Shown here piece by piece: positions 30,046 to 52,043 of a stretch of 64,000 nt of DNA. Where the stretch lies: the NCBI GenBank assembly GCA_014905825.1, contig JACGCN010000021.1:806001-870000 (forward strand). Reading direction: 5' to 3'. Under the pieces are notes generated by a model. It searched no databases and was not told the origin of the DNA. It was given only the letters and a program-made list of their open reading frames with translations. Within the stretch, counting starts at the first letter, position 1. Every line of letters starts with the position of its first letter. Source of the DNA: Lyophyllum atratum. Taxonomy: Eukaryota > Basidiomycota > Agaricomycetes > Agaricales > Lyophyllaceae. The position numbers and the translations under genes are program-made.

Positions 30046-30851
30046 ACTGCTGGAAGAGCGCAGGTCAAAGTTTCCGACCTCGATATAGTTGTACTAGTCG
30101 ACGGCCGCTTTTCATTGCGAAACTTGTAGTTTCCAAGATGCCTAGCTTCGGTAGCCGTATAATATGAATCTATGAGAATAAGACTGTGCAACTCTATATT
30201 AGTCGGTTCGTCTTTGCTGGCTAACTCGCTGCTACTCAGTACTCAGTACTCAGTACTCAGCTTTGTGGTCGTCATGTTGTTGTGGAACTCCTTATCTTAT
30301 CTGATGAATTCACCCAATGATGGATTGGTTGATTCCTTCCCGCCCCGGGCCGCCACCAACGTGCTCGAGTCGACATTATTTGCTTGCGGAGCGTCCGTCG
30401 CATCAAGCCACCTTGTACATCCCGAACACACGTTTATCCCCAGCTAGCTCTACAACTACCTTTCACACTGCCGACCTCAATGTTCTCGTGCACCACAATG
30501 AGCTCTATTGCTGGCATTGATGTGATTCATGCCGTTGAGTCTCAGTCGCCACCTACTTCTGCATATTTTTGATAGCTTTGTTTATAGCGCTAGTCGCTGA
30601 TTTGCGGTCCTAGTCTGTGATTGATAGCAGAAAAGCAACATGGCATGGCTTTTGTAAAGGCATACAAAGCTCGGCCATGCGACTGGAAATCTCACAGGAC
30701 TTGATACACACCCGGGGCCCTCTTTGACTGCAACATTGAGGCTGATCCTGCCCTCAATCAGGCCAGCTTCGTGCGCACGTTCGCTACGACCACATAAGTA
30801 GCCTCGGATTCTTTATTGGTTCACTCTGTTCTTCTCGTGTGACCTATCCCC
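30046..30851. other. Intergenic region with a short heptamer repeat
   Basis: About 800 bp between the SAR1-like gene and the phytase-like gene. Apart from the 7-bp tandem repeat at 30233 I see no gene. The last 200 bp should contain the phytase-like promoter. Confidence 0.45.
30233..30260. repeat. Heptamer microsatellite, (tactcag)x4
   Basis: Four perfect tandem copies of tactcag. No coding frame depends on it. Confidence 0.97.
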
Positions 30852-32756
30852 ATGTTGGCATCGCTGGCGTCGTCCGTTGGTTTCTTGTTTCTGGCAAATT
30901 GGGTTTGCGCATCGCCTGCGCCAGGTGCTGCGGGTGATGGTACGCCGGCCGCACGCGTAGTCCAGTCTGTAACTTTGAATGGACAGACTTTTGTGAACAA
31001 GGTACGTCGTGAATCTTTTGTCGTCATCGTGATTCGGCTGTTGACGACTATAATTTTGAAGGGTCTTGTTGGGTTTGGACTCATCCCTTCCGACTTCAGG
31101 GAGTCCACAGGAGATACTCTCGGTGGAATTGGCAGCGCGATGGATATCAAGTATGGCTCTTTCAAAGCCTCGAATGGAAAATTCCAAGGAACCTTTGTCG
31201 TCTCGCCTGATCGCGGCTTCAACATGTGAGGATTCCCTGTCTAGAAGCTCTTCATTCCTCCTCAACGCTCGCATCGCTCAGAAATGGCACCATTGACTAT
31301 CAATCCCGTCATCACGAAATCGACTTTACCCTAACACCCTACTACGACACGGCGAATCTCAGTTTCGTCGCTGCTCAGAATACTCTTAGCCTTCGCTACA
31401 GGAAGACTATTTTGAATTCTGAAAGGGAAAACAAAAAGACGTCTGGGCTTACACCCCTTGCTGTGCGGAAAGAGCAGTCTCGATCCTCAACAAAGGCTTT
31501 CTTGGACCCGGAAATGCCAATTGCCTCAATAGCCGAGCCACACCTCTCCGTCGACGCTGAAGGCCTTGTCTCCAATCCTGACGGAACGTTAGTCATTTCA
31601 GTCTAGTCGACGGAGTTTATTCATATGTTATTTTGCAGCTTCTGGCTCAGCGATGAATACGGCCCATATATCTATCGCTTCTCATCGGACGGGAAATTGA
31701 TCCAGACCATTCAGCCACCCAATGCTTTCCTTCCTCGTGATGCCTCAGGCGCCTTGAATTTCTCGTCAGAGGCGGTCCCCAAAACTGGTCGTAATGGAAA
31801 CCAAGGTATACTTCCCGAAGTTCAACCAAAAGTTTTCTATCTTTGATCACCCTCATTTATGCAGGGTTTGAGAATCTTACGCTTGACCATAAAAATCAAA
31901 TTTTGTATGCCATGCTCCAATCCGCCACAATTCAAGACGGTGGTGACTCGAAGAGTACCTCTCGGTATACCCGTCTCGTCGCCTATGATGTCTCCCATCC
32001 ACTCCTCCGTCCCAAGCTCGTTGGCGAATGGGTGGTTCCTCTCCCCCAGAGCTCCAAGGGAAACACGCAAGCGAGCAGCGAGATCCACTTTGTGAGCCCC
32101 GGCGTCTTCTTGGCACTTGCTAGAGATGGGGACGGCAGAGGTGGTGGTGACGATAATTCTGGATATAAGTGAGTTGACCGTAGAGTCGGGTCGCATGACC
32201 AATACTGACACGTTCCAGGCAAGCAGATCTGTTCTCCATCGTGGGTGCGACAGATATCCACGGTACAAAGTTCGACGATCCGGCGCACCCGATCGCTACT
32301 GGCGGTGTTCTCGACCCCAGTATCAAGCCCGCGACATATGTTCCTTTCATCAACTACCTCGACCCCGCTGAGCTCGCAAGATTGGGGTTGCACAATGGTA
32401 TGGAATTAACAGCTGATCACTGTCTTTGTTCACTCGTGTACTGACGAGCCCTGATGCTAGGTATACCCAATGATCAAACCCTTATTGATGCAAAATGGGA
32501 GTCTTTCGCCCTGGGATCTGTCAATGAGGCAGACCACCCAGATGATTACTTCCTCTTCACCGCTGTAAGCTTTTCCTCTCTTAGGTGTTAGTCCACTTTC
32601 TTATAATTAAATATCTTGTAGTCCGACAACGACTTTCTTAGTACCAAAGGTGTTGCTTTGGGCGTTCCGTTCGATGGTGGTTTGGACGTCGACAACCAGT
32701 TCATGGTGTTCCGAGTGACATTGCCGGGTGCAACCAAGGCCCGACAGGGCCTGTAA
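30852..32756 (+). CDS. Secreted phytase-like domain protein (esterase-like activity of phytase)
   Basis: Signal peptide MLASLASSVGFLFLANWVCA, then the phytase-like (PF13449-type) beta-propeller over several exons. Landmarks are GLVGFGLIPSDFRESTGDTLG, GIGSAMDIKYGSF, GTFVVSPDRGFN, DGTIDYQSRHHEIDFTLTPYY and PHLSVDAEGLVSNPDGTFWLS. These are followed by DEYGPYIYRFSSDGKLIQTI, GFENLTLDHKNQILYAMLQS, TRLVAYDVSHPLLRPKLVGE, FLALARDGDGRGG, GATDIHGTKFDD and DNDFLSTKGVAL, ending LPGATKARQGL. The frame is continuous. Fungal members are extracellular or lumenal and poorly characterised; phytase activity is suggested only by the family name. A paralogue with the same exon pattern lies 600 bp downstream but is disrupted, so this copy is the functional one of the pair. 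Confidence 0.88.
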
Positions 32757-33362
32757 ATTTTTCCTCGTTTTGCACAAAGAAAATGACAGACATCATATGC
32801 TCTTTGGATAGAAAAGTCGAAAGCGCCGGAGCACTCTTAAAATATCTTGATGCTTAAAAAAAAGGGCACTTCCACAGACTTCCACCCACGTTGACCAAAA
32901 TAGCTCTAAAGATCGCTGCTACTCGGCGCCAATTGCGCCATTCCTTCCTTGTACCATGCTTTATCTTCCTTCCATTTCAACATCAGTGGTGACTGCGGCC
33001 ACCCTGCGAACGTTCGATGACGGCTCCACGCGTACGATGTCGATACTGCTACATTTGTCAACTCTTCGGCCTTAGGGACGGCCTTCAGCAAGCATCACCC
33101 TTGTTAAGCTTCTCGATGGCAAAAAAGGCAAGGGGTCTCTTAACAGCCCCAACGGAGCTATCAAGGAATGTCAAGTCGAATACACCCCATCACCTGGCAG
33201 ATACAGATCAGTTATCGGTGCTTCTCATCCATCGTTTGACGACGCGACTGCCATTCACGCAACGCAACTACCAGGTGATTCTCGCAGAACCCATGCTGAG
33301 CGTCTATATCAGCCTGAATTTCGGCCTCGATGCATCATATCCTCTCCCCTTGCGATCTCTCA
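32757..33362. other. Spacer between the two phytase-like copies
   Basis: Should hold the 3' end of copy 1 and the promoter of copy 2. Short protein-like stretches occur (minus strand 33091-32906, plus strand about 33030-33200). None has a start, stable splice pattern or recognisable family, so I do not call a gene. Confidence 0.4.
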
Positions 33363-33805
33363 ATGCTAACGTCCCAAACGTTTGCTCTTTGTCTCTTGCT
33401 GCTAGCGAAAGGCGTTCACTCATCTCCGGCAGGGTCCGCGACGGCCCATGGGGCGAGAGCTGCAGCATCTCCAGTTTCTCTAGCACTGAACGGAGTTACC
33501 TACGTCAACAAGGTGTGGGGTCCGGAGTAATATTTTGCGTCGCCCGTGAAACTTACTTTCCACCATGCAAGGGCTTAGTTGGTTTCGGTCTCATCCCGCA
33601 CAACTTCCGGGAAACAACCGGAGATACACTAGGTGGCATCGGTAGTGGTATCGACATCAAGTTCGGCACATGGAGGCAAGCATCCGCCGGTACCTTCATC
33701 GGAACTTTTGTCGTGACACCAGATCGCGGGTTCAACGTGTACGCACCTTTTCAATATCTTCCCGTTGCATGTGCTCACTTGTTTCTCAGAGATGGGACCA
33801 TAGAC

Positions 33806-33933
33806 CAGGCTCCTAGAACCAGCCGTCGATATGGTGAAGACGACTCTATCCCACTGCGGGTGTTGATGCCTTATCTGTAAAAATAGATTTTCTCATCATG
33901 TGATCAGTAGCCAATCAGTATCGAGGTGGTTTG
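33806..33933 (+). repeat. Left terminal inverted repeat of the DNA element
   Basis: Outer 19 bp match the right end at 18 positions. Inner blocks at about 33908-33933 (agccaatcag, gaggtggtttg) also recur in the right arm in inverted orientation. The 9-bp target repeat lies just outside at 33797-33805. Confidence 0.8.
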
Positions 33934-34274
33934 GTCGTCGCAAATCCACCTTTCCCCATTCCTCCAGTGCCATAAGTGATTAGTACGGCAGCACACGAAG
34001 AAGTCGATAACATGTCTACGCTACTGGACTCTGTAGCAATACATGGGCGGCGCGGAGAAGAAGCTGGAAGCAGCAAGACCGAGGTTTTTCTCGAGTATAC
34101 TCATGTAATAGCACTCAGCGTACGAACAAGCGGCCAATCTATTCCAGGTTCCAAAACAAATGCTTCTCCTAGTGTGCGTGAAAGTTGACAAGAAAAAAGT
34201 ATCGTACAAGGTATCGTAAATCCAAGGACAACTTGACAGCATGTTGATCAAAGCAGCGTAAAGAAGAAAAAAAC

Positions 34275-35460
34275 CTACTCCGCACGACAGACAAAGTCCA
34301 CGAGGGCGAGAAGCCCAGCCCTCTCGTCCCCAAGATGACGCTCGACGACGGCCTGCATCTCCGCGTGCAACAGCGGGCCGTGTGCGGCCTCGTCTCCCTT
34401 GGTCCGGATGGTGGACTGGTACTGCACGACGAGGGCGCCGCCCGCCGACTCGAGGAGCGCCAGTGCGGTCTCGGCCTTCTTCTTCTTGTCGCTGCCTGCT
34501 GGCACTTGATTGACGCGTTTTTGAAGAAGAGTCTTCGCGTCATCCAGGCGCTGGGTGTCGGTTTTGTTACCACTGAGCGTCTCGCGCCACCTGAGGGAGG
34601 CGGAGTTGCCGGCGGTGTCGAGCCCGGCGGCGTCGGCAAGGTGTTCCTGCGCCTTGGTGACGAGGTTGCGGAGGGCGATGAAATCGAGCTGGATGAGGAC
34701 ACGGATGTCAGCGGTGAGGCGAGCGCAGGCAGAGGTGTGCACGACGTACCGGGTTCCGGGCTTCGTTTGCCTGCCTCAGCTCCTCGACCGCCGCGTTGAG
34801 CTTCCGAGTCTGCTCCTCGAACTCGTCTGTGAGCTCACCGTGGGCCGACTGGATGCGCTCCGCCCATGCCTCGATCGACGCTTTCGATGTCGTGAGAGTC
34901 TTGATCTGGTTGGTCTGCTTGGATATTTGCCGGTCGCGCTCCCCGACGAGGTCGTGGCGCTGACTGAAGACCTCCATAAGGCGGTTGAAGCGAGCATCCT
35001 GGGACTGATTGATCTCCTCAAGCCGCTCGACCTTCCGATTGAGCTGCGCGATCTCCTTCCCCTGCACCTCGATCACCCCCTCAAGCCGCACGATCTCCTT
35101 CCCCTGCACCTCGATCACCCCGTGGAGCCGCGCGATCTCCTTCCCCTGCACCCCGATCTCCTTCCCCTGCACCTCGAGCACCCCCTTGAGCTGCACGATC
35201 TCCTTCCCCTGCACCTCGAACTTCCCCTTGTGATCCTGCATCATGTCGTTGTACACCTCCTCCCAGTTCTTTACGTGGTTCTTTGCAGCTCTCACCTCCT
35301 GGTTCTTCATCTGGATTAACGTTAACACATCGGCCTGCCGTTTTGCTGCGGCTGCATCTGCGGCTGCGGCCGCGCCAGGGACTGGCGGCAAGAAAGCGTA
35401 TAGATTCGCTGGCGGCGTGTCAGATAGGTCAGAGTCGTCGGAGAGTTCTGTAGGAGACAT
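34275..35460 (-). CDS. Coiled-coil protein carried by the TIR element
   Basis: ATG at 35460 gives MSPTELSDDSDLSDTPPANL, an Ala/Pro-rich stretch (PGAAAAADAAAAK) and then an almost continuous coiled coil. Inside it, EVQGKEI heptads repeat in 14-residue units encoded by a 42-bp minisatellite (35050-35238). More helix follows (QSQDARFNRLMEVFSQRHD, DEFEEQTRKLNAAVEELRQ). One intron lies at about 34692-34755 (gtacgt to tccag). Exon 2 encodes LDFIALRNLVTKAQEHLADA to a C-terminal LLALVDFVCRAE. I know no family for it and see no catalytic motif, zinc finger or signal peptide. It sits wholly between the TIRs, about 100 bp from the copia left LTR on its 5' side, so its own promoter may be lost. It could be a captured host gene or an element-encoded structural protein. 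Confidence 0.65.
35050..35238 (-). repeat. 42-bp coding minisatellite (two-heptad unit)
   Basis: The 18-mer gatctccttcccctgcac starts at 35050, 35092, 35134, 35155 and 35197, giving 42-bp spacing with one 21-bp half unit. On the minus strand each unit encodes 14 residues with VQGKEI at its core, that is, exactly two coiled-coil heptads. Confidence 0.93.
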
Positions 35461-35567
35461 ATTAATTGAGCAAGGAAATAGAGAGGGGAGTAGTTGCACG
35501 ACGCACCAGATGTAACCACAATCCGAGTATCGCCGTTGCGGACGGCGGCTTTGCGCTCCGCGGATAA

Positions 35568-35899
35568 TGTTAGGATTTGAGGGACACCGCAAACACCCCT
35601 TTGTGAGTGTCGCTCGATCACGGTCTCTTTATTCACGGTCTCGTTATCATACTTACACAAACGACTCTTTATCATACATTTACCTATATATACCTACTGC
35701 ACGTACTCGGGCACCCTCAGTCACTTATACATCGGACTGAGGGTGAGCCACTTTATCTTATCTCACTTACTTATCCTTACTGATCATACCGTAGTCTATT
35801 CTGTCTTGTTACAGGTATGATCATCAATACAGTCACTTATACATCGGACTGAGGTCTATTCTGTCTTGTTACAGTCTATATACGGTACTCATTCTAACA
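35568..35899 (+). repeat. Left LTR of the copia element
   Basis: 332 bp. Compared with the right LTR it has 34 extra bases just after gacaccg (about 35590-35625). Both LTRs contain two copies of cagtcacttatacatcggac, forming short palindromes (cctcagtc/gactgagg), and two copies of tctattctgtcttgttacag. Confidence 0.93.
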
Positions 35900-35909
35900 G
35901 GTTATGGGC
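35900..35909 (+). promoter_or_regulatory. Primer-binding site, half-tRNA type
   Basis: ggttatgggc follows the left LTR directly. It is complementary to the anticodon-loop side of initiator tRNA-Met (gcccataacc), not to a tRNA 3' end. This is how Drosophila copia and yeast Ty5 prime, using a cleaved tRNA half. Confidence 0.7.
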
Positions 35910-36098
35910 AATTGCCGTACACTCTAGTGCACGAGCATTTAGAATCCGTACCGTTCTATTTTTGATCTCGGGCCGCGCCCCGATCAAATCAATCTTATCA
36001 ACGCGTCGTAATCTCATCGACGCGCCTCGCGACTTCCACAGGGAAAGGTCCTTTGTCCTCATACCCTCTCTACGCACCTCATCATCACCGTCACTATC

Positions 36099-39000
36099 AT
36101 GGGCGAACCAGGCAACAACAACGATGCCACACATCCAACTATCCCCCTACTTCATGTTCGAACTTCCTTCTCGGGTGATAAACTCGAACGGGACAAAGGA
36201 GATTTCAAGAAGTGGGAACGCGACTTCATGCTCTTCATTACTATGAACCATCTAGACGGCTACTTTATCGCACCCTACGTGAGGCCTCCCTCCCCAAAGG
36301 ACGAACCGCGCGCATATGGCAACTACACCGCCAATAGTCGCATAGCCGTCGCCGCTCTACAGCAGGCCGTCGGCGAATCCGAGATGGAGTTCATCGACTA
36401 CACGAAGGGCGCCAGATCCTGCTACGAGACCATTACCAAGCGTTGCAAATCCGCCGGTCCCGTGAAACAAATCTCCCTCATCCGCGACGCTCTCTCCACG
36501 TACTGCTCTTTGTCTGAGCCACTCGCGTCGACCGCCACTAAAATCTGCGGCACGATCGAACGCGCATTCGCGATGGGGAACATCACCGAGGACCTGTTCA
36601 AGTGTATCGCGCTGCTCAACAGTCTCAACGACAAATCCTTCGAGTCCATCCAATCCAATATCTCCCGGGCTCTATCCGACTCTACCACCGACAAGCCATA
36701 TACCTCCGAGCAAATTCGCCGGGTTCTTGAAAGCGAAGATACCCTTATCTCCAGCAAGAAGCAAATGCACACGTCGGATGTCGCACTCTCCGCTAAGTCC
36801 TCCAACTCACACAACCACGGCTCGCACGACATCTGCTGCAGCGTCTGCTTCGCGGCCGGGAAACCTTGCAAGGGACATAAGAAGGAGTGGTGCGTTAGGA
36901 AAGGAGGAGGAATGGAAGGGAAGACCATTACTGAGTCGATTGCGGCGCGACGCGCTAAGGGAGCTGGGAAGTCATCCTCAGAAGGTTCGGGCTCGAATAA
37001 AATCTCCGTCCCCTTCACTATCAACAACAAAACGCACATCGCGCATGTCGACCCAAGCTCTATCCAGGAGATCGCGACTGAAGGCGCGAAGCAGGCATTC
37101 GCCGGCCTAGCGTCCACTCCCATCCCTAACGCATCCTCTATTCCAGACGTTGCTTGGCTAGCGGCGGCTGGGGGGGAGCTCAAGACATCTGTCGACTGGT
37201 CCAAGCACACCACGATCGCCAGTGAGTCCGCGCTCGCCGCGACCACACTCCAACAAACCAAACGCACTCCTGTATCCACTGAAGATTTCCCCTTCTACGC
37301 CGACACCGGCGCATCCGTCTACATCAGCATGGATCCTAACGATTTCATGCACCTGGAATCCATTCCAACCCGTTTCATCGGGGGCGTCGGGGGATCCTCC
37401 CTCGCCGCCATCGGGATAGGCAGAATTCGCCTCCGCATAGCGAGAGGGAAATATCTCGACCTACCAAACGCGTTATATGCACCCACTTCCACCGTCCGCC
37501 TAGTCTCCATCAGTTCCCTATCCATTGACGCCAACACCTTCTCGCGCTTCGACGACGAGGGGGTAAAGATCTACGATAAATCCACCGGCGCCTTCCTCGT
37601 CGGCGGATCACTCCTGCCAAACCGCCTATATTCGCTAAACTTACACTCTGTATCCGCCGAACATGCCCTATCCACTCAACATGCACCTGATCTCTTGACA
37701 TGGCATCGCCGCCTTGGTCACACGAATTTCCAGACGCTCAAAGAGATGGCGAAATCGGGCACGGTTGCAGGTATGCCCTCTTCCTTCCCCATCCTACCGC
37801 CCAAATGTGAATCTTGTATTCTTGGAAAGCAGACCAAGACTCCGGTTCCAAAGATGCGGGTGGAAGGGGCGGGGCATAGAGCGACGAGGCGACTGGGAAT
37901 TGTTTGGGTAGATCTCACAGGGCCTGCTCCTGTACAATCGCGCGAGGGTTACAGATACATAATGAATCTGGTTGACGACTACTCAAATAAGCCATGGTCA
38001 ATACCCCTCAAGCTGAAAAGCGACACGTTTAGAGAACTACAGGCATGGGAACGCGCACGGGAAGTCGAAACCGGCTTAAAAGTCGGGACATATCGTACTG
38101 GGCACGATGGTGAGCTCTCGGGACATCAAATGGAGGAATGGCTGCGATCCACGGGTACGGATCAACAGTTCGGCGCCCCCTACACCTCAGCGCACATGGG
38201 ACGCGTCGAACGAATGCACCGAACTCTCATGAATAAAGGTCGCGCAATGCGCATCTCCGCTGAATGCCCGCCAAACATGTGGGTAGAATTCTATCTGACA
38301 GCCTGCCACCTTCACGAGAAGACACCGACCAAATCACTCAAAGGCCTCACACCGTACGAACTTTGGCATAACCGTAAACCCGATTACTCTTACATCCGCG
38401 AGATCGGATGCAAAGCCTTCGTACTCATCCAGAACCGCCACAACCCAAAAATATACGAGCGCTCTATCGAGTGCATATTGATCAGCTACAACCCGAAGGC
38501 TAAAGAGTATAGGTGCTACGATAAGAAGTCGGGCCATGTCTACAGCACTTACCATGTTCGCTTCCTCGAGAGCCATGAAGGACATCCTCCCCCTACACCA
38601 ATCAACCCAGAATCGGAACTCGATGATCCCGTCACACCCAGCCAGATTCGCGACGAGTCTACCGCCGAACCCATTATATTCGATGATGACGAGGACTTTA
38701 ATCCACCTATCGACGCTATAGCGGACCCCATTGCCGACATTGTTCCCCAACCAGATGCTCCCGAACCTCCAATCGAGCCCCGCCGATCCGGACGCGTCCC
38801 TCAACCAACTGAGAAAGCAGATCCGAATAATCCTCAACCAACGCGACTTCAGCGCGCCGTGCAGGACTCCAAAGAGAGCGCCGAACGCGTCAAGGCCGCG
38901 AGGACGGAACGTCGGGCACAAGTCCCTGATGACGTCGATCACGCGGACCCTGTTCCTGATCTCGCACATATCGGAGGTAATCTCGATCATGATCGCCTAT

Positions 39001-40640
39001 TAGCCGCGATTGCGGAGACCGGCGACATAGATCCGACAACCCTGGAATTCGAGGACGAGCCGAAGTCGTGGAGGGAAGCCAGAGAGTCGGCAGATGCAAA
39101 GAAATGGGAGGAGGGGTATCGAGATGAGTTGAAATCACTGAAGGATATGGGGGTTTACGAGCTCGTTCCGAGATCAGAGGTCCCACAAGGCCACAAGGTC
39201 CGGAAAGGTCGCCCGATATTCAAGATCAAGAGGGACGAGAACGGGAAAGCCGTAAGGTTTAAGGTCCGTTTGGTATTCAAAGGCTACGAGCAAATCTATG
39301 GGAAAGATTACACGAAAACAACCTCACCTACAGCGCGCATGGAATCCTGGCGCATATTGCTTCACCTCGCGGCCTCGCAACCAGGATGGAACGCAACACA
39401 AATCGATGTTAAAACCGCCTTCTTATATGGACTACTACCTGACGACGAAGTACAATACATGGAACAACCGGAGGGATTCGAGGAGGAAGGAAAAGGAGAT
39501 TGCGTATGGAGATTGGTGCGGGGATTATATGGGATGAAGCAGAGTGGAAGGATTTGGAACCAGACCCTCAACGAGAATATGATCTCGTGGGGGTTCACTC
39601 GTCTCGCGTGCGAATCATGCATCTATTATCGAACTACTGACACTGGGACCGTCATCGCAGCCGTACACGTTGACGATTTCCTCTCCATCGCTAGCTCCAA
39701 AGACGAGAACGATCGGTTCAAGGATCAGATGCGCCAAGTATGGACCATTTCCGACTTGGGGACCCCAAGATTCGTCGTCGGTATCGGGATCGAATGGGAC
39801 CATCAGAATTCATCCGTCAAACTCTCTCAGGTCGCTCTCATCGACAAAATCATTTCCCAATTCGGCCAAAAAGACGCTACACCGTTATCCCTACCTATGG
39901 ATCCCGGACTCAAACTAAGACGCGTAGATCGCGCCACTCTTACAGACGACGAACGCGAAGCCCTATCCCGAATCCCATATCGATCACTCGTCGGATGCCT
40001 ATTGTATCTGGCGATCTCGACGCGGCCAGATATATCCTACGCTGTTCAACAACTGACCCAATACGTCGATTCCTACACCGAGATCCATTGGAACGCGGCC
40101 ATCCGCCTCGTCCGTTACCTGAAAGGTACCCGCGATCTTAAACTGACCCTTGGCGGCAAGGATAGCACCATATCATTACTGGGCTTCACCGATTCCGACT
40201 GGGCGAATTGCTTGGATACGCGGCGCAGTATCGGAGGATACGCGTGGAACATGGGATCAGGGGCGATATCCTGGGCAGCGCGTAAGCAGAAGACCGTCGC
40301 GGCTTCCTCATGCGAGGCAGAGTACATGGCTGCGTTCGAAAGCGCACAAGAATGCATATGGCTTCGCGCGCTCCTCAAAGCCATTGGACACGACATCACA
40401 CAGACGCCTACCACCATGCTGTGCGACAATAACGCCGCGATCAACCTATCAGAAGATCCCCTACTCCACGCGCGCGTCAAACACGTTGACATAAAGTACC
40501 ACTTCTTGCGCGAACGCGTACAGTCCAAAGAAATCGCGATTCGATACATTAACACCAAGAATAACGTCGCGGACATATTCACTAAAGCACTACCGGCGCC
40601 GCTATTCAATCGCCTTCGCTCTCTACTCGGTCTCCAATAG
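36099..40640 (+). CDS. Copia gag-pol polyprotein, uninterrupted
   Basis: One ORF of 1,513 codons. Order of domains: gag region (residues 1-250), then a Cys/His cluster (CCSVCFAAGKPCKGH, about 248-262) that is not a normal CCHC knuckle. Next comes aspartic protease DTGAS (about 408). The integrase has a HHCC head (WHRRLGHTNF, CESCILGKQ) and a DDE core seen as WVDLTGP, TGHDGELSG and GRVERMHRT. Reverse transcriptase shows KARLV-like FKVRLVFKGYEQ, QIDVKTAFLYG and the active site AVHVDDF. RNase H shows GFTDSDWA, ASSCEAEYMA and DNNAAINL. The C-terminus is NVADIFTKAL to LLGLQ. All catalytic residues I can check are present and there is no internal stop, so the element may still be able to move. It has no separate gag stop or frameshift; how gag excess is made is not visible. 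Confidence 0.95.
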   Translation: MGEPGNNNDATHPTIPLLHVRTSFSGDKLERDKGDFKKWERDFMLFITMNHLDGYFIAPYVRPPSPKDEPRAYGNYTANSRIAVAALQQAVGESEMEFIDYTKGARSCYETITKRCKSAGPVKQISLIRDALSTYCSLSEPLASTATKICGTIERAFAMGNITEDLFKCIALLNSLNDKSFESIQSNISRALSDSTTDKPYTSEQIRRVLESEDTLISSKKQMHTSDVALSAKSSNSHNHGSHDICCSVCFAAGKPCKGHKKEWCVRKGGGMEGKTITESIAARRAKGAGKSSSEGSGSNKISVPFTINNKTHIAHVDPSSIQEIATEGAKQAFAGLASTPIPNASSIPDVAWLAAAGGELKTSVDWSKHTTIASESALAATTLQQTKRTPVSTEDFPFYADTGASVYISMDPNDFMHLESIPTRFIGGVGGSSLAAIGIGRIRLRIARGKYLDLPNALYAPTSTVRLVSISSLSIDANTFSRFDDEGVKIYDKSTGAFLVGGSLLPNRLYSLNLHSVSAEHALSTQHAPDLLTWHRRLGHTNFQTLKEMAKSGTVAGMPSSFPILPPKCESCILGKQTKTPVPKMRVEGAGHRATRRLGIVWVDLTGPAPVQSREGYRYIMNLVDDYSNKPWSIPLKLKSDTFRELQAWERAREVETGLKVGTYRTGHDGELSGHQMEEWLRSTGTDQQFGAPYTSAHMGRVERMHRTLMNKGRAMRISAECPPNMWVEFYLTACHLHEKTPTKSLKGLTPYELWHNRKPDYSYIREIGCKAFVLIQNRHNPKIYERSIECILISYNPKAKEYRCYDKKSGHVYSTYHVRFLESHEGHPPPTPINPESELDDPVTPSQIRDESTAEPIIFDDDEDFNPPIDAIADPIADIVPQPDAPEPPIEPRRSGRVPQPTEKADPNNPQPTRLQRAVQDSKESAERVKAARTERRAQVPDDVDHADPVPDLAHIGGNLDHDRLLAAIAETGDIDPTTLEFEDEPKSWREARESADAKKWEEGYRDELKSLKDMGVYELVPRSEVPQGHKVRKGRPIFKIKRDENGKAVRFKVRLVFKGYEQIYGKDYTKTTSPTARMESWRILLHLAASQPGWNATQIDVKTAFLYGLLPDDEVQYMEQPEGFEEEGKGDCVWRLVRGLYGMKQSGRIWNQTLNENMISWGFTRLACESCIYYRTTDTGTVIAAVHVDDFLSIASSKDENDRFKDQMRQVWTISDLGTPRFVVGIGIEWDHQNSSVKLSQVALIDKIISQFGQKDATPLSLPMDPGLKLRRVDRATLTDDEREALSRIPYRSLVGCLLYLAISTRPDISYAVQQLTQYVDSYTEIHWNAAIRLVRYLKGTRDLKLTLGGKDSTISLLGFTDSDWANCLDTRRSIGGYAWNMGSGAISWAARKQKTVAASSCEAEYMAAFESAQECIWLRALLKAIGHDITQTPTTMLCDNNAAINLSEDPLLHARVKHVDIKYHFLRERVQSKEIAIRYINTKNNVADIFTKALPAPLFNRLRSLLGLQ

Positions 40641-40674
40641 ATCCCCAGGTTTCCATGCGAGGAGGAGTATTTGC

Positions 40675-40686
40675 GGTGAGGAGGAG
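40675..40686 (+). promoter_or_regulatory. Polypurine tract of the copia element
   Basis: ggtgaggaggag abuts the right LTR and would prime plus-strand DNA synthesis. Confidence 0.75.
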
Positions 40687-40984
40687 TGTTAGGATTTGAG
40701 GGACACCGTCTCTTTATTCACGGTCTCTTTATCATACTTACACAAACGACTCTTTATCATACATTTACCTATATATACCTACTGCACGTACTCGGGCACC
40801 CTCAGTCACTTATACATCGGACTGAGGGTGAGCCACTTTATCTTATCTCACTTACTTATCCTTACTGATCATACCGTAGTCTATTCTGTCTTGTTACAGG
40901 TATGATCATCAATACAGTCACTTATACATCGGACTGAGGTCTATTCTGTCTTGTTACAGTCTATATACGGTACTCATTCTAACA
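40687..40984 (+). repeat. Right LTR of the copia element
   Basis: 298 bp from TGTTAG to CTAACA, otherwise near identical to the left LTR. It lacks the 34-bp segment of the left copy and is followed by the target repeat gataa. Confidence 0.93.
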
Positions 40985-41099
40985 GATAACTCTCGAGAGA
41001 TGGCTTCCCTTAGTTCGTGTCCAGAGCGCTGGGTAGTTATCGGTATAGGTTGACCATCGGTCGTAGGAAAGTAGACCGTCAGTGTGGCGAGGATCAACA

Positions 41100-41217
41100 C
41101 AAACCACCTCTGATCTGATTGGCTGCTGAAACGCCCTCACAATTTCCACGGACTCAACACTTGCCCAAGTCCCTCAAATTACGCCTCGCCATATCGGGGG
41201 CTGGTTTTAGGAGCCTG
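41100..41217 (-). repeat. Right terminal inverted repeat of the DNA element
   Basis: Inverted counterpart of 33806-33933. Matching blocks are aaaccacctc, ctgattggct, ccatatcg and the outer 19 bp. The 9-bp target repeat follows at 41218-41226. Confidence 0.8.
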
Positions 41218-42676
41218 ACCATAGACTATCAAGCCCGACAACATGAGATTGACTTCGTCTTCACGCCGTATTATGGAACAGCAAATCTCAATTTCGCTGC
41301 GGCCCAGAAAACCCTTGCCTTGACCTACAAGAACACGGTATTGAAGTTTGAGAGGAACAACACCAAGACCAGCGGACTAGATCCTACTGCAGTCAGGGCG
41401 GCCCAGAATGGGTTCCCGCAGACTTTTACTGCCGATCCTCAACTTCCCATTGCCTCGAACTCTCTCCCGCATCTCGTCCTTGACGTGGAGGGTATCGTGT
41501 CAAATAGTGATGGAACGTAAGGATCCCTCCCTACTTGCCTTCCAGAATCCCATGATCAAGCCGCGCTTGCTCGCAGATTTTGGATCAGCGACGAGTATGG
41601 ACCTTACATCTACCGATATTCAGCAGATGGGAAACTGATTCAAACGATCCAACCACCTAATGCATTTCTTCCGCGCGACTCGTCTGGCGCATTGCAGTTT
41701 ACATCAGACACTGACCCGAAGACTGGCCGAGCGGGCAATAAAGGTACATATACATGGAACCTCCTTCGCGGGTTGCTTTTGATTTGACGGTTGGCTAGGC
41801 TTCGAGGGCCTGACCATTGACCGAACCAACAACATTTTGTATGCAATGCTCCAATCAGCGACAATCCAGGACGGGGGCGGTGACAAAAGCACCTCTCGCC
41901 ATACACGCCTTGTCGCCTATAATGTTTCCGACCCCCTCGTTCGACCATCTCTAGTGGGAGATGGGTCGTCCCTCTTCCATTGAGCTCAAAAGGGAACACA
42001 CTGGGCTGTAGTGAGATTCACTTCGTGAGCCCTGGTGTGTTCCTAGCACTATCCAGGGATGGCGATGGTCGTGGGGGTGATGATACCAACTCGAAGTACA
42101 AGTGAGCATCCACATGGAACGTCCGGGGGCTCTCATCATGATGACTCTGTTGCAGACAAGCAGAACTTTTCTCCCTTGTGGGAGCCACTGACATCCATGG
42201 CACGAAGTATGACGATCCTGCGACGCCAGTCGCGCCTGGTGGTAAACTAGTCTCCAGCATCAAGCCCGCAACCTACCTTTCGTTTGTCAGCTACGTAGAA
42301 ACCAACGGCCTCGCACGCTTCGGGCTTCATAATGGTAAGCCTTGCGTATTGTTGGATGCCTGATGATAACTCACTCCGAGTTTCCAGGCAAGCCGGACGA
42401 CCAGACGCTTGTTGACGCGAAGTGGGAGTCGTTGGTCTTGGCTTCAGTAGGAGAACCCGCCTACCCTGACGACTTCTTCCTGTTCACCGCGGTATGTACT
42501 GACTTTATGAACCATTATAAGGGAGTAGGCTGACATGTCTGTTGTAGGCGGACAACGACTTTATCAGCACAGACGGCGTGTCCCTTGATGTTCCATTCAA
42601 CGCTGGCTTGGACGTCGACAACCAGTTCCTGGTCTACAGGGTAACGTTTCCAGGAGCAGCTAAATACCATGTATAG

Positions 42677-43122
42677 GCAACTCCTTTCGAAATCGGCTTA
42701 GGGACGTTGATTCGGATCTAGCATGCATATAGTACTGGAAAACACACTATTTCGAGAGCCCAGTCTTAAGGTCAAGCTAGTCAAAAGTAATCAAGTACGC
42801 ACAGAATACAACTCGTTTGCGCTTACAAGTTATGTACCGTCAGACTTCGACTCCGACACTTTAGTCGATCCAAAGCATAGGTGCAGCAACTACGTGCTGC
42901 ACCTATGATCTGTGCACCATAGCGGAATGGCAGTTTGCCCACTCGCCGAAACAATGTTGCAAATACTGCGGTTGTTTCTGGGCTCATCGAAAAGGGATAT
43001 GTATAAATTACATGAGGGTGATCCGTATATGCGTATGCGTTGAAGTTGTTCGAAATGATAATGCAGGTGGTATGTGGAGACGAAAACGACACTGAATGGA
43101 AAGAAAACCGGAAGCACGAAGG
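42677..43122. other. Spacer between pseudogene 3' end and SLP1 3' end
   Basis: Convergent 3' flanks of the phytase-like pseudogene and the SUN-like gene. It contains a perfect hairpin (42876-42907) and no gene that I can see. Confidence 0.45.
42876..42907. repeat. Perfect 13-bp inverted repeat (hairpin)
   Basis: cataggtgcagca (42876-42888), six-base loop actacg, then its exact complement tgctgcacctatg (42895-42907). It lies about 200 bp past the pseudogene stop. Possible roles are a 3'-end structure or the scar of a small inverted-repeat element. Confidence 0.9.
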
Positions 43123-46428: not shown

Positions 46429-46711
46429 AAAATGGGTGCCCCGGTGACACGGCGCGTTTCAAACAGTCGCATACGAAACGTCGCGCGTTTCGAGACTGTT
46501 CGGCGGCGGTCTCATTGACCACGCGTGGGGATGTTACGAATACGAGACCGTACCCACCTAGAAGAGGGGCAAGGCAATTGAGACTTCCCCAGGGATTCTC
46601 TTATTGACTTTCCTTCTCTAGGTAAGACGGTTCTCTCTTTATCCCGAGGGATTTTTCGTATTGACGCCTTCGCTTAGCGCGTTCACTTAGGGCACCGATT
46701 ATTTTTCGTGT
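46429..46711 (+). repeat. Split direct repeat A1
   Basis: 283 bp beginning aaaatgggtgccccggtgac and ending atttttcgtgt; recurs as A2 at 51516-51798 with no differences noticed. Confidence 0.92.
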
Positions 46712-46769
46712 TCATAAATACATCGCGCTTGCTCAACTCAAGTCAGAATCCTTCTAAGTCAGACGTAGT

Positions 46770-48242
46770 ATGACAGGTCATGGAGACGATCCCCCACAGC
46801 AACCACCTGTCGCTTCTGGATCGACTGCGGCCTCCAGACGCCCTGCAGGACCATCTGCTAACCCAGGAGCCCCTCATGGCGAACCCGGGCGACCAGGGGT
46901 CTCAACCCGTTCCACTGCTGGAACGACTCAGCTCCCCGGGCCGGGACCTTCAGCCACCCCTGTATCCCATGGGTCCTCAGCCGCTTCTAGCTCGACTCTC
47001 CCTTCCCAGCCTACGGGAGCCGTGTCCACCACCATGGGTTTCCAGATCGAACTCTCCAGACAAGTCGAAGCGATCCTTGACGACTTCCGGCAGGGGAAGC
47101 TTGAAAAAGGGGCGGCCTCCTTATCCGTCTTCAAAATTCTTAGCTTCTCGGCAGGGGACGAGGTGGCGAAGGAGCTCGCCATCAAGGAGTACCTTTCTGC
47201 CCTTGACGACATTCACCGTGAAATCCAATCAGCCACTCGACGCGGAGAAGGAGCGGGGGCGGCGCTCGCACAGAATGCACTCAGACCACCCGGTGCCGAA
47301 GAACCCAACGGCGCCCGGGAGCCGGGGGAACCTGACGATGACCAGGAACTCGAGAGATTCCTCAACGAGGAGCAATCCCGCATCCGCGCGCGGGAGAAGT
47401 CCATCTCCTCTGATGATAACGACGACGGGGGGAGAAAGAAGAGAAAGCTCGCCGTCAGTGACATGCCGTGGTTTAAAAAGGAAACCGTCGCGCAGCAGGT
47501 CCAGCGCACCCAATGCAAGCTCACGCAGGAAATACTCGCTCGCTTCGCGAAGGACCCGGTATTTGTCAAGCGATGCCTTATGTCCAGTTGTTCCGCCCCT
47601 CCAGGATTCCCCGAGTGGGACGCGGTCATCCGAGGAACCGCTGTCAACCTCCATTCCGTCTTCTCGGCCATCCACTCCATCATCCCTCCTAAAGAGGAGT
47701 CTGGCCGCGTGGGAGACACTGAGATCCGCTTTTCCAAACCCGAGCCAGCAAAGAAAATTACGACTTCCCAAGACTGGTCCCTCGCGTGGCGTTATACGGT
47801 CGAGGCCTATACGTTCATATTCGAGGAGCGCACATCGGAGCTTAATTCTTGGGCCAAGCACATCGAGGGTATGTTCGCGTCAGTCCAAGTCTCTTACCAC
47901 GGGCGGATTATCCTCTACGACATCGCCGCCAGGAACATCGTCGCTGGTGGGCAGCAGAACTTGCTCACCGACATCCACCTCTTCTCTAACCTCTGGTTAT
48001 CCATCGGTACTTCCATGGGACGACTTGCCGGTGGATCAGACGGAAGCAAAAAAGGTTCCGGGTCAGGATCGGGATCGGGCGGAGGCAATCGCAACGAGCT
48101 GTGCAACCGGTTCAACGACAAAACCTGCACCAGCGCCGCCGGTAAATGCAAATACATCCATCAATGCCGGAAGTGTGGCTCCAAGGAGCACGGGGCTGCA
48201 AAGTGTGTCGAGAAGGGAGGCGGAAAGGATAGGGAGGCCTAA
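46770..48242 (+). CDS. Ngaro gag-like protein (ORF1)
   Basis: 490 codons. The N-terminus is rich in Pro, Gly and Ser (SGSTAASRRPAGPSANPGAP). A helical middle (FQIELSRQVEAILDDFRQGK) is followed by an acidic and basic patch (REKSISSDDNDDGGRKKRKL). The body contains FAKDPVFVKRCLMSS and SAIHSIIPPKEESGR. Near the end are a C3H1-like finger and knuckle: CNRFNDKTCTSAAGKCKYIH, then CRKCGSKEHGAAKC. Such Cys/His units bind the element RNA. The whole ORF is overlapped in the +1 frame by an open reading frame that continues into RT. Confidence 0.8.
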   Translation: MTGHGDDPPQQPPVASGSTAASRRPAGPSANPGAPHGEPGRPGVSTRSTAGTTQLPGPGPSATPVSHGSSAASSSTLPSQPTGAVSTTMGFQIELSRQVEAILDDFRQGKLEKGAASLSVFKILSFSAGDEVAKELAIKEYLSALDDIHREIQSATRRGEGAGAALAQNALRPPGAEEPNGAREPGEPDDDQELERFLNEEQSRIRAREKSISSDDNDDGGRKKRKLAVSDMPWFKKETVAQQVQRTQCKLTQEILARFAKDPVFVKRCLMSSCSAPPGFPEWDAVIRGTAVNLHSVFSAIHSIIPPKEESGRVGDTEIRFSKPEPAKKITTSQDWSLAWRYTVEAYTFIFEERTSELNSWAKHIEGMFASVQVSYHGRIILYDIAARNIVAGGQQNLLTDIHLFSNLWLSIGTSMGRLAGGSDGSKKGSGSGSGSGGGNRNELCNRFNDKTCTSAAGKCKYIHQCRKCGSKEHGAAKCVEKGGGKDREA

Positions 48243-50061
48243 GTATCTACGTCACAACCTTTGGGAGCCGCCAACCGCGCTCTCGAAGTCGGCCGCCGAT
48301 TGGACCGAACATGCTATTCCTCTACCTTCCATCCCTCTCTCCGAACTCAACGACCCTATCGCTTCCAAAACAATCGCAGAAAACCCATCGCTCTTCAAGA
48401 TCGTCACCCCTATCAAGGTGGACTACTTCGAGTCCATCCTTGCTGATCATCCAAACCAACCCTTTGTGCTCTCGGTATGCCGCGGCTTGCGAGAGGGATT
48501 CTGGCCCTGGGCCGATACCCATCCTGACGTGTATCCGCACACGTTCGACGCATCGTTCGGTTCTCCAGCGGACCCCGACGAAGCTCAATTCTTACGCGAC
48601 CAGCGGGACACGGAGCTCAGTAAAGGTCGCTTCTCAGATACATTCGGCCCTAGCCTGCTACCAGGCATGTACTGCATGCCCATTCACGCGATCCCCAAAC
48701 CGTACACGGACACCTTTCGTATGATCACCGACCAGTCGGCTGAAGAATTCTCACTGAACTCCATGATCCATCGCGAGGATATCTCCGGCTACCCGCTGGA
48801 TGACATGTCACTGCTCGGCAACATGCTACTGTTCCTTCGGGAATCTATTGGCCCCGAAGATAACCTCATCCTCTTCAAATCAGACGTCGCCGAGGCCTAT
48901 CGACACATGCCCATGTCATCCCACTGGGTCCTGAAACAGGCGAACATGATCGACGGTCTTTATTACCTCGACCGTTGCAACGCTTTCGGTGGGAGGGCCG
49001 CTCAGGCCATTTGGATATCATTCATGTCCCTCGTCGTCTGGATCGCCAAGTACGTCAGAAATATCCCGCTCCTTCTCTGCTACTCCGACGACGCTTTCGG
49101 ACCGAATTCCTCCGGGGACTACACCTTTTACCCGCCATTTAAGAAGTCGCTCCCCACCAATCAAACCAAACTCCTCATGCTCCTCGACGACCTTGGCGTA
49201 CTGCATAGCGAGAGGAAGCAAATCTCGGGCGCGCCGCTCGTCATTATCGGTATCGAAGTCGATCCCAACCTCATGACTCTAACGCTGCCCACGGCTAGCA
49301 GGATCGACCTCATCTCCAAGATCAATCGGTTCTGCATGGGAAGCAAGAGCACCGGTAACGCTAAGTTCCCCCTCCGCGAGTGGCAGGCGCTTGGCGGACA
49401 CCTCAACTGGGCCTTCAACGTCTTTCCCCTCCTACGGCCGTGCACCAGCGCGCTTTACGTGAAGATCGCGGGCAAAGACTCGCTTAACGCTCGCATCTGG
49501 GTCAATACCGATGTTCGCGAGGAACTCCTGTGGGCCCGCGACCATCTCACTCGCGCCTCGGGCGTGTACCTCGTTCGTTCTTTAGACTGGGCCGCTCTGT
49601 CTGCTGATGCCATCCTTTATTGTGATGCATCCCTCTCAGGATGCGGGTGGTACAATCCGTCCAACCATACCGGGTTCTACTGCTCTATCCCTGCTAAGGC
49701 TCCCAAAGACCTAATCTTCTTCTATGAAGCGCTTTGCGTCGTCTTCGCATTGTATCACACTGATAGCATATACTTGCCACAACCGGCGAAGATCATCATT
49801 TTCACGGATAATCACAACACCGTCGACATCTTCTCCTCACTCCACGCCTTGCCCCAATACAACCGCCTCCTTCGCGTCTCGTGCGACTTCCTTATTCGTA
49901 CAGAGCACCAGCTTAGGGTGCTGCATGTCCCGGGGAAAGAGAACGGCATCGCTGATGCGTTGTCGCGAAACCATTTCCAGCTCGCACAACAGCTGGATCC
50001 GCTCCTCGTGCTTAACGAGTTTACACCCCCCGAGAGGTTACTGGGGGCGTTGTTATTATGA
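46780..50061 (+). CDS. Ngaro reverse transcriptase / RNase H (ORF2), open frame also spans ORF1
   Basis: The frame is open for 1,093 codons from an ATG at 46780, only 10 nt after the gag ATG. Recognisable RT sequence begins at about 48.24 kb: RPKYLRHNLWEPP, MYCMPIHAIPKPY, MITDQSAEEFSLNS, FKSDVAEAYRHMPM, CNAFGGRAA and the active site LLCYSDDAFG. RNase H follows with YCDASLSGCGWY, FFYEALCVVFAL, IIFTDNHNTV and GKENGIADALSRN. These are DIRS/Ngaro-type motifs. The N-terminal 480 codons have no recognisable domain and may not be translated. RT could then be made by reinitiation or frameshifting at the gag end. The stop (tga, 50059-50061) overlaps the recombinase ATG at 50058. Confidence 0.82.
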   Translation: METIPHSNHLSLLDRLRPPDALQDHLLTQEPLMANPGDQGSQPVPLLERLSSPGRDLQPPLYPMGPQPLLARLSLPSLREPCPPPWVSRSNSPDKSKRSLTTSGRGSLKKGRPPYPSSKFLASRQGTRWRRSSPSRSTFLPLTTFTVKSNQPLDAEKERGRRSHRMHSDHPVPKNPTAPGSRGNLTMTRNSRDSSTRSNPASARGRSPSPLMITTTGGERRESSPSVTCRGLKRKPSRSRSSAPNASSRRKYSLASRRTRYLSSDALCPVVPPLQDSPSGTRSSEEPLSTSIPSSRPSTPSSLLKRSLAAWETLRSAFPNPSQQRKLRLPKTGPSRGVIRSRPIRSYSRSAHRSLILGPSTSRVCSRQSKSLTTGGLSSTTSPPGTSSLVGSRTCSPTSTSSLTSGYPSVLPWDDLPVDQTEAKKVPGQDRDRAEAIATSCATGSTTKPAPAPPVNANTSINAGSVAPRSTGLQSVSRREAERIGRPKYLRHNLWEPPTALSKSAADWTEHAIPLPSIPLSELNDPIASKTIAENPSLFKIVTPIKVDYFESILADHPNQPFVLSVCRGLREGFWPWADTHPDVYPHTFDASFGSPADPDEAQFLRDQRDTELSKGRFSDTFGPSLLPGMYCMPIHAIPKPYTDTFRMITDQSAEEFSLNSMIHREDISGYPLDDMSLLGNMLLFLRESIGPEDNLILFKSDVAEAYRHMPMSSHWVLKQANMIDGLYYLDRCNAFGGRAAQAIWISFMSLVVWIAKYVRNIPLLLCYSDDAFGPNSSGDYTFYPPFKKSLPTNQTKLLMLLDDLGVLHSERKQISGAPLVIIGIEVDPNLMTLTLPTASRIDLISKINRFCMGSKSTGNAKFPLREWQALGGHLNWAFNVFPLLRPCTSALYVKIAGKDSLNARIWVNTDVREELLWARDHLTRASGVYLVRSLDWAALSADAILYCDASLSGCGWYNPSNHTGFYCSIPAKAPKDLIFFYEALCVVFALYHTDSIYLPQPAKIIIFTDNHNTVDIFSSLHALPQYNRLLRVSCDFLIRTEHQLRVLHVPGKENGIADALSRNHFQLAQQLDPLLVLNEFTPPERLLGALLL

Positions 50062-51068
50062 ACCTTACCCCCGTGCGGTCCAGACAACCTGACCGTCCTG
50101 TCTGGTCTCGCGAGCGTCTCATTCGGACGCGGGCTATCGCCCTCGGTCAAGCTATTGATTCCACCACTGAAAACAACTACAACTCTGCTCTTAACTCTTA
50201 TCTAGAATTCGTTCGCCAACATGACTTCCCTATCGAACCCACCGCCGACACCTTGAGCCTCTACGCCGGCTACATGTGTTTCCAAATTCGCCCAACTTCC
50301 GTCAACTCTTACCTCTCGGGCATCTGCAACCTCCTCGAAGCCTATTTCCCCAACGTCCGAGAATTTCGCAACGCACCCATCGTCCACCGTACCATCAAAG
50401 GCTGCAAACGCTGGCGGGGGACACCTGTTAATCGTAAGGAGGCTTTAACCATCGAGGATCTCGACTTCGTCGCTGAGCACTACGCATCATCTTCGGCGCA
50501 CGACGACCTCCTTTTCTGCGCCCAATTATTTACCGGGTTCTTCGCGCTGATGCGTCTGGGCGAGCTTACCTACCCCGACAATCATGCCCTTCGTAACCCG
50601 CGCAAGGTCACTCGGCGAAACACCGTCATCTTAACCATCGACGATTACAAATTCTTTCTTCCCTCTCACAAGGCCGACACCATGTTCGAGGGGAACACCA
50701 TCATCGTCCCAAGGAAGAACGCTCGCCACGACCCTCACTCCGCATTCCTAGCCTACCTATCCAGTCGCGATCGTCTTTTCCCTTAGAGCTCTCCCCTCTG
50801 GCTTAGGGCCGACGGGACCATCCCTACACGCAAATTTTTTATCAACCGGCTTCGTCAATTCTTCGACGCCAACTTCGCGGGGCAATCTATGCGGGCTGGT
50901 GGCGCCACCGCCCTTGCATCCAGTGGTGTCGCGCCGTCCGTCATCAAGGGGATCGGCCATTGGTCCTCGGCGTCTTTCGAGATTTATATTCGTAAACACC
51001 CCGTCCTGCTCCAGGCTATATTATACGGGCGCTCCCTCCATGACCCCTTCTACGCCCATCCTACCTGA
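50058..51068 (+). pseudogene. Ngaro tyrosine recombinase (ORF3) with an in-frame TAG
   Basis: The frame starts at ATG 50058 in an atga overlap with RT. The N-terminal core-binding part includes STTENNYNSALNSYLEFVRQ and LSLYAGYMCFQIRPTSVNSY. The catalytic part has the first Arg in GFFALMRLGELTYP. A TAG at 50784-50786 interrupts the frame after SSRDRLFP. Beyond it the same frame continues with PLWLRADGTIPTRKFFINRL, SMRAGGATALASSGVAPSVI, IGHWSSASFEIYIRKHP and ends at 51068, giving the second Arg, the His and the Tyr nucleophile. The lesion removes all later catalytic residues, so this copy needs readthrough or help from another element. Confidence 0.85.
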
Positions 51069-51335
51069 ACACTTTCCTATTCTCATCTACCTCCCTCCCT
51101 CCCTCGGCCGCCATCGCTTAAAGCCTACTCCATTTTTTCTGGCCCTTCTCGCTCGCACTCGGACCCAGCTACGTACTCCTCTATTAAATATCTTTGAACA
51201 ATGTCCCCTTCCTGAACATTGCGGGCTGGTGCTGCCACCGCCCGTCTGAATTTTACCTACCTACTTATTATTCTTACCGCGATTTATATTTTCCCATCGC
51301 TCCTCACATCGTACCTCATCTCTATATTAGGTTTT

Positions 51336-51475
51336 TAGCACTACCACGATACGAAAATGGATACGATCGGTTTTTTCGGCTTTCCGGCTGGCTCGTTTGC
51401 CGCCGGGACAGCTGACCGATTTATTGCTATTCCTTTTTCAAGTCCGATAACTGAGGACCCAAGCCAAGGCATTGG
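51336..51475 (+). repeat. Split direct repeat B1
   Basis: 140 bp from tagcactaccacgatacg to ccaaggcattgg; identical as far as I can read to B2 at 51904-52043. Confidence 0.92.
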
Positions 51476-51515
51476 TCGGTGTTTAAATTTTTATTTACGC
51501 TAGTCCAACGTCGCC

Positions 51516-51798
51516 AAAATGGGTGCCCCGGTGACACGGCGCGTTTCAAACAGTCGCATACGAAACGTCGCGCGTTTCGAGACTGTTCGGCGGCGGTCTC
51601 ATTGACCACGCGTGGGGATGTTACGAATACGAGACCGTACCCACCTAGAAGAGGGGCAAGGCAATTGAGACTTCCCCAGGGATTCTCTTATTGACTTTCC
51701 TTCTCTAGGTAAGACGGTTCTCTCTTTATCCCGAGGGATTTTTCGTATTGACGCCTTCGCTTAGCGCGTTCACTTAGGGCACCGATTATTTTTCGTGT
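51516..51798 (+). repeat. Split direct repeat A2
   Basis: 283-bp copy of A1, placed between B1 and B2 with spacers of 40 bp and 105 bp. Confidence 0.92.
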
Positions 51799-51903
51799 CC
51801 CACCCACCCGCTATCCTTCTCTGCTGTGTCTTTTTTCACATCAGGTATTCGTACGTTCATTTGTTGGCTCGACGCCACTGTGTTATTACTTTGTACGGCT
51901 CGC

Positions 51904-52043
51904 TAGCACTACCACGATACGAAAATGGATACGATCGGTTTTTTCGGCTTTCCGGCTGGCTCGTTTGCCGCCGGGACAGCTGACCGATTTATTGCTATTC
52001 CTTTTTCAAGTCCGATAACTGAGGACCCAAGCCAAGGCATTGG
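51904..52043 (+). repeat. Split direct repeat B2, right end of the Ngaro element
   Basis: 140-bp copy of B1. Its last base marks the end of similarity and hence the element border. Confidence 0.9.

What the first reader, a model, noticed from the sequence alone, without database searches (positions are those of the whole stretch)
33797..41226. Gene-carrying long-TIR element inserted in a phytase-like exon with exact 9-bp target duplication
Termini match at 18 of 19 bp, with further inverted blocks to about 125 bp. Both sides carry accatagac, and the uninterrupted paralogue at 30852 shows the empty-site reading. Without the nested copia the element is about 2 kb and holds a coiled-coil gene and no transposase. 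That is the layout of a Pack-type (gene-capturing) element, which is rarely described in basidiomycetes.
Basis: partly seen in the sequence, partly recalled or inferred. Interest (0 to 1): 0.8.

Follow-up and report, generated by a model that had tools for sequence, protein, structure and literature searches.

The report
Gene-carrying 9-bp-duplication transposon in fungus
A two-kilobase jumping element without a recognisable transposase, but with an intact-looking gene of unknown function, sits inside a broken phytase-like gene of a fungus, and it belongs to a scattered family of elements that duplicate nine bases on insertion, one larger member of which carries pieces of recognisable cellular genes.

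Summary
A TIR element lies at 33806-41217, flanked by an exact 9-bp duplication, inside an exon of a phytase-like gene. A younger Copia (35568-40984, 5-bp duplication) is nested in it; without it the element is 1990 bp. A second contig (C86), probably the other haplotype, has the same insertion, lacks the Copia and has two other LTR insertions. TIR and duplication lengths fit Mutator-like elements (MULEs), but no transposase was found between matching TIRs, so this is likely, not shown. 'Pack-type' is half supported: the cargo, a predicted 374-aa coiled-coil gene with one intron, has no DNA-level donor in the genome, only ~41% protein relatives there and two relatives in Lyophyllum shimeji. 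One family member, the 13.8-kb C35 element, carries ATG4-, MIOS- and APH-like pieces that recur elsewhere at 94-96% identity; which copy is the source is not settled. New member of a known kind.

The parts
33797..33805 (.). left copy of the 9-bp target site duplication ACCATAGAC
   Evidence: exact match to 41218-41226, only at length 9 of the lengths 5-13
33806..33933 (+). left terminal inverted repeat (about 128 bp; 93% to the C101 copy over 135 bp)
34275..35460 (-). predicted cargo gene: exon 35460-34750, 61-bp GT..AG intron 34749-34689, exon 34688-34275; 374 aa, coiled coil plus a conserved C-terminal part
   Evidence: hand splice, no transcript evidence; C-terminal part 46% and 41% identical to two Lyophyllum shimeji proteins; no transposase domain
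35563..35567 (.). 5-bp duplication GATAA of the Copia insertion, left
35568..40984 (+). nested Ty1/Copia element, LTRs 35568-35899 and 40687-40984, one open frame 36099-40640
   Evidence: LTRs differ by 1 substitution and one 34-bp gap; open frame; Pfam RVT_2, gag and integrase-type domains
40985..40989 (.). 5-bp duplication GATAA of the Copia insertion, right
   Evidence: the C86 copy has the site once
41090..41217 (-). right terminal inverted repeat
   Evidence: about 80% over 134 bp to single ends at C80:167640 and C75:539048
41218..41226 (.). right copy of the 9-bp target site duplication
33363..42680 (+). interrupted phytase-like gene (outer limits approximate); besides the insertion its right part has a reading-frame break near 41960, present in both contig copies
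   Evidence: the paralogue's product matches PF13449
30852..32757 (+). uninterrupted phytase-like paralogue, used as empty-site reference

Best explanation
The feature is a non-autonomous, gene-carrying TIR DNA transposon, most likely of the Mutator-like (MULE) kind. Inferred mechanism: a transposase supplied from elsewhere in the genome recognises the long TIRs, cuts the element out and inserts it with a 9-bp stagger, whose repair leaves the 9-bp duplication. Here it landed just inside an exon of a phytase-like gene and interrupted it. Shown: the TIRs, the duplication, the family of related copies with the same duplication length, the later Copia insertion, the same insertion on a second contig. 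Inferred: the class (MULE), trans-mobilisation, and that the coiled-coil gene is passenger cargo rather than an old accessory gene of the element.
For: Exact 9-bp duplication. TIR-core sites in the own genome: 51 against 10 for the reversed-pattern control; 16 against 0 for a longer pattern. 11 of 13 paired loci, 440 bp to 13.8 kb, have exact 9-bp duplications. Recent activity in the family: C60 and C80:98466 have 80 of 80 identical bases between their two ends. Papers: MULEs have 8-11 bp duplications and long TIRs (PMC6446971, passages); maize Mu elements make 9-bp duplications and have ~220-bp TIRs with unrelated interiors (PMC3276141, passages). The superfamilies named in PMC12730594 (passages) use other lengths: Zisupton and Dileera 8, hAT 5-8, IS3EU 6, EnSpm 3. 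The genome has MULE transposase-like segments (PF10551: 9 matches, 8 over cut-off).
Against: None of the 9 MULE transposase matches lies between paired ends of this family, so the transposase is unidentified. The two TIRs of the window element match only in blocks, so this copy may be immobile. The CAGG start resembles hAT ends (recalled), though hAT duplications are 5-8 bp. Inside C35 only 5,001 of 13,772 bases plus the two ends were read, and of C60, C69, C80:98466, C119 and C2 only 80 bases at each end.
Confidence: 0.66

Rival explanations
1. The coiled-coil gene is not captured host DNA but an accessory gene of the transposon lineage, left after loss of the transposase gene.
For: No DNA-level donor in the genome; relatives only at 41% protein identity at C46:324190 (with one stop inside) and C13:1077887, and two paralogous proteins in Lyophyllum shimeji, as expected of a dispersed old family.
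Against: No core TIR site was found near C46:324190 or on C13; the cargo DNA is in no other family member, as one search found it nowhere but here and in the C86 copy.
Confidence: 0.35
2. The element belongs to another or an undescribed cut-and-paste superfamily with 9-bp duplications, not MULE.
For: No transposase was linked to these TIRs; the ends start with CAGG.
Against: 9-bp duplications with TIRs of more than 100 bp are a usual MULE pattern; the superfamilies named have different lengths.
Confidence: 0.25
3. The break in the phytase-like gene arose by rearrangement, and the repeat pairing is chance.
For: Both contig copies carry it and no insertion-free allele was found.
Against: Exact 9-bp duplication; 11 of 13 family loci show the same; 0 of 156 cross pairings.
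Confidence: 0.02

Closest known systems
Mutator-like elements (MULEs)
   Same: 9-bp duplication, TIRs of 100 bp or more, unrelated interiors between related TIRs
   Different: no transposase between these TIRs found here
Tm1 Mutator/Foldback family of root-knot nematodes (PMC3169594; abstract and section list seen)
   Same: variable TIRs, 9-bp duplications, MITE-like members and a member enclosing a gene (Cg-1); low copy number per a section heading
   Different: Tm1 has a member with a putative transposase; different kingdom
Pack-TYPE / Pack-MULE elements of plants (PMC8903248; passages seen)
   Same: TIR and duplication, no transposase, gene between the TIRs
   Different: a donor gene for the window cargo was not found; captured pieces are a possibility only for C35 and C62
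hAT element with captured histone H3 in Dothideomycetes (PMC6710886; abstract and passages seen)
   Same: fungal DNA transposon with a host gene between its ends
   Different: hAT with 8-bp duplications, ascomycete, donor known
Helitrons with cargo genes in Pleurotus ostreatus (PMC4289320; passages seen)
   Same: gene-carrying DNA transposon in a basidiomycete, with cargo genes of unknown origin; [quoted passage not shown]
   Different: rolling-circle element without TIRs or duplications (recalled)

Membership tests
MULE superfamily | target duplication of 8-11 bp, commonly 9 | tested here: met
   exact 9 bp at 11 of 13 paired loci, the window element among them
MULE superfamily | long TIRs | tested here: met
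   about 128 bp in the window element, in blocks; similarity between the two ends over about 150 bp, 74-76%, in C101 and C66:398423
MULE superfamily | transposase with MULE domain in an autonomous member with the same TIRs | tested here: inconclusive
   9 PF10551 matches in the genome, none between paired ends; interiors of several members unread
Pack-type element | no transposase between the TIRs | tested here: met
   no Pfam transposase in the 374-aa product or 8 further ORFs of the 11 ORFs listed; the two not scanned reach into the phytase gene and the Copia. The nested Copia is left aside
Pack-type element | cargo derived from an identifiable host gene | tested here: not met
   window element: no DNA match but itself and pieces of its C86 copy. 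Family member C35: duplicated gene pieces, direction unproven
hAT superfamily | 5-8 bp duplication | tested here: not met
   9 bp; hAT lengths
KDZ (Zisupton, Dileera) | 8-bp duplication | tested here: not met
   9 bp; lengths
Foldback/Tm1-like | composite TIRs of variable length with internal repeats | tested here: inconclusive
   the TIRs of C101, C66:398423 and C94 seem to hold a second, inverted copy of part of their own end (seen by eye in the alignment); not analysed further

The most novel reading that the evidence does not exclude
A MULE-like family in a mushroom-type fungus that works as a Pack-type gene shuttle: short empty members, a 2-kb member with one gene, and 9-14 kb members that carry patchworks of DNA found elsewhere in the genome, in one of them gene pieces (ATG4-, MIOS- and APH-like), all with 9-bp duplications.
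Probability: 0.42. Interest if true: 0.55.

Novelty: new member of a known kind. Interest (0 to 1): 0.42.

Why it matters
If the capture reading holds, it would give a basidiomycete case of TIR transposons moving gene pieces, which I saw described for plants (Pack-TYPE) and ascomycetes (hAT with histone H3); for a basidiomycete I saw Helitrons with cargo genes, whose authors doubt capture from the host. It would make it testable whether such elements supply new genes in mushrooms. In the searches (open-licence papers only; I read the listings, which showed 12-15 of 131, 13, 503 and 32 papers) I saw no Pack-type MULE described in a basidiomycete; that is a limited search.

Tried and rejected
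Rearrangement as the cause of the break: rejected because of the family-wide 9-bp duplications. Search for a donor of the cargo by DNA: only itself and its C86 pieces. Protein search with the whole cargo product: none at E <= 0.001 among the 7996 candidates scored; with its C-terminal 137 residues two Lyophyllum shimeji proteins among 7504 candidates. Structure prediction of the C-terminal exon alone: pLDDT 57, too weak for a fold search. Rfam: 0 matches in 33600-41500. C62 and C35 as autonomous partner: no Pfam family at E <= 0.01 in the 17 scanned of 30 C62 ORFs of 110 aa or more, and no transposase in the 5 ORFs scanned from the 5.0 kb of C35. C80/C75 single right-type end: no second end, and no exact 9-bp repeat within about 9 kb on C80; one repeat with a single mismatch at C80:175774 has no TIR end beside it; C75 was searched over about 5 kb. 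A Pkinase_fungal gene lies next to this end. I first took C35 as copied from C108/C71; but a C62 stretch that lies beside the shared part on C108 and C71 has no counterpart in the C35 DNA read, so their surroundings differ and donor and copy cannot be told apart. A reading of one C62 ORF as an EH-domain gene was dropped, as Pfam gave nothing.

Full report
What is there. The element runs from 33806 to 41217 with ACCATAGAC directly outside both ends. The ends match at 18 of 19 bases, 88% over 32, with a further inverted block to about 128 bp. It sits a few bases inside an exon of a phytase-like gene (my reading of the splice site); the paralogue at 30852-32757 reads through the same point and its spliced product matches PF13449. 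The interrupted gene also has a later reading-frame break, shared with the C86 copy.

Nesting and alleles. The Copia at 35568-40984 has a 5-bp duplication GATAA, LTRs that differ by one substitution and one 34-bp gap and one open frame. Without it the element is 1762 + 228 = 1990 bp by coordinates. Contig C86 is collinear with the window (95.1%, 96.5% and 96.6% in the outer blocks, 99.9% in 30187-34441, 99.6% in 34539-35567) and I take it as the other haplotype, which is an inference. It has the same element and the same 9-bp duplication, no Copia, and two LTR insertions with identical LTRs (824 and 868 bp) and 5-bp duplications at 34437-34441 and 34539-34543, both inside the last exon of the cargo gene. 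So the TIR element is older than the nested insertions, and its cargo gene is whole on one contig and broken on the other. No insertion-free allele was seen.

Family. A DNA search with the left end gave 11 matches in the genome, itself included; a 34-base pattern 9 sites against 0 control, a 32-base pattern 16 against 0, the 16-base core with one mismatch 51 against 10, and a 20-base pattern with three mismatches 41 against 8. From I paired inward-facing sites within 14 kb on one contig: 13 loci, counting the window and its C86 copy once; 22 of the 51 sites are in no pair. Exact 9-bp duplications: window, C101, C66:398423, C94, C62, C24, C119, C69, C60, C80:98466, C35, that is 11 of 13; C2 is off by one base and C46 has none; mismatched pairings gave 0 of 156. 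C101, C66:398423 and C94 (916, 912 and 457 bp) share only terminal parts with the window element. C60 and C80:98466 have 80 of 80 identical terminal bases, which suggests recent activity.

Cargo. The window cargo is a predicted 374-aa protein with one 61-bp intron, Pfam hits only below curated cut-offs, relatives at C46 and C13 (41%) and in Lyophyllum shimeji (46% and 41% in the C-terminal part; 35-36% overall). No DNA-level donor. In C35, 5,001 of 13,772 bases and the two ends were read; ORFs there match Peptidase_C54 (ATG4; its last 45 profile positions), MIOS_a-sol, zinc_ribbon_16 and APH, while one of the five scanned matches nothing. The stretch C35:868000-871000, which holds the MIOS- and APH-like parts, recurs at C108 and C71 at 94-96% and in pieces at C77 at 80-86% (one 34-base piece 91%), with a 198-base match of 74% at C130; no core site lies near these places. 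Whether the ATG4-like part recurs was not tested. A 1.5-kb stretch of C62 matches pieces of several other contigs at 74-97%, a patchwork. Whether these are donors, products or common repeats is open.

Class. Duplication and TIR length fit MULE and not the other superfamilies named. The defining transposase was not linked: 9 PF10551 matches, none between paired ends (against 28 and 51). I therefore call it MULE-like.

Verdict. Real and more than chance; a non-autonomous gene-carrying TIR element of a small family. The Pack-type label is plausible for the family and unproven for this copy.

Noticed in passing
C86:745734-780851 (loci L014-L018): A 35-kb LTR-bounded insertion (868-bp identical LTRs) inside the C86 copy of the element holds many near-identical inverted repeats of about 2.5-5 kb; a pile of nested elements or an assembly artefact.
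   Followed up: no
L023 (C63:631416) and L024 (C86:1913923): Two duplicated loci (87-92% alike over kilobases) share a ~110-bp left-TIR remnant upstream of the same start codon, 133 bp away in the C86 copy and 428 in the C63 copy: a possible reuse of the TIR as promoter or leader.
   Followed up: partly
C80 about 172604-173230 (L026/L057): A 627-bp insertion with 91-bp inverted ends (89%) is present in C80 and absent in the otherwise 99.9% identical C75: a polymorphic element of another family.
   Followed up: no
window 41010-41085: About 76 bp near the right end of the element are absent from the C86 copy.
   Followed up: no
window 46430-52043: About 5.6 kb of the window have no counterpart at the collinear place in C86, where the flanking blocks meet directly.
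   Followed up: no
window 30187-34441 and 41218-42680: Identity between the two contigs is 99.9% here against 95-97% in the outer blocks: recent common ancestry or gene conversion around the element.
   Followed up: no
L058 (C62:256380-265620): The left arm of C62 is interrupted by a piece with its own inverted ends; the two arms of about 489 bp are otherwise nearly identical, which hints at template switching.
   Followed up: partly
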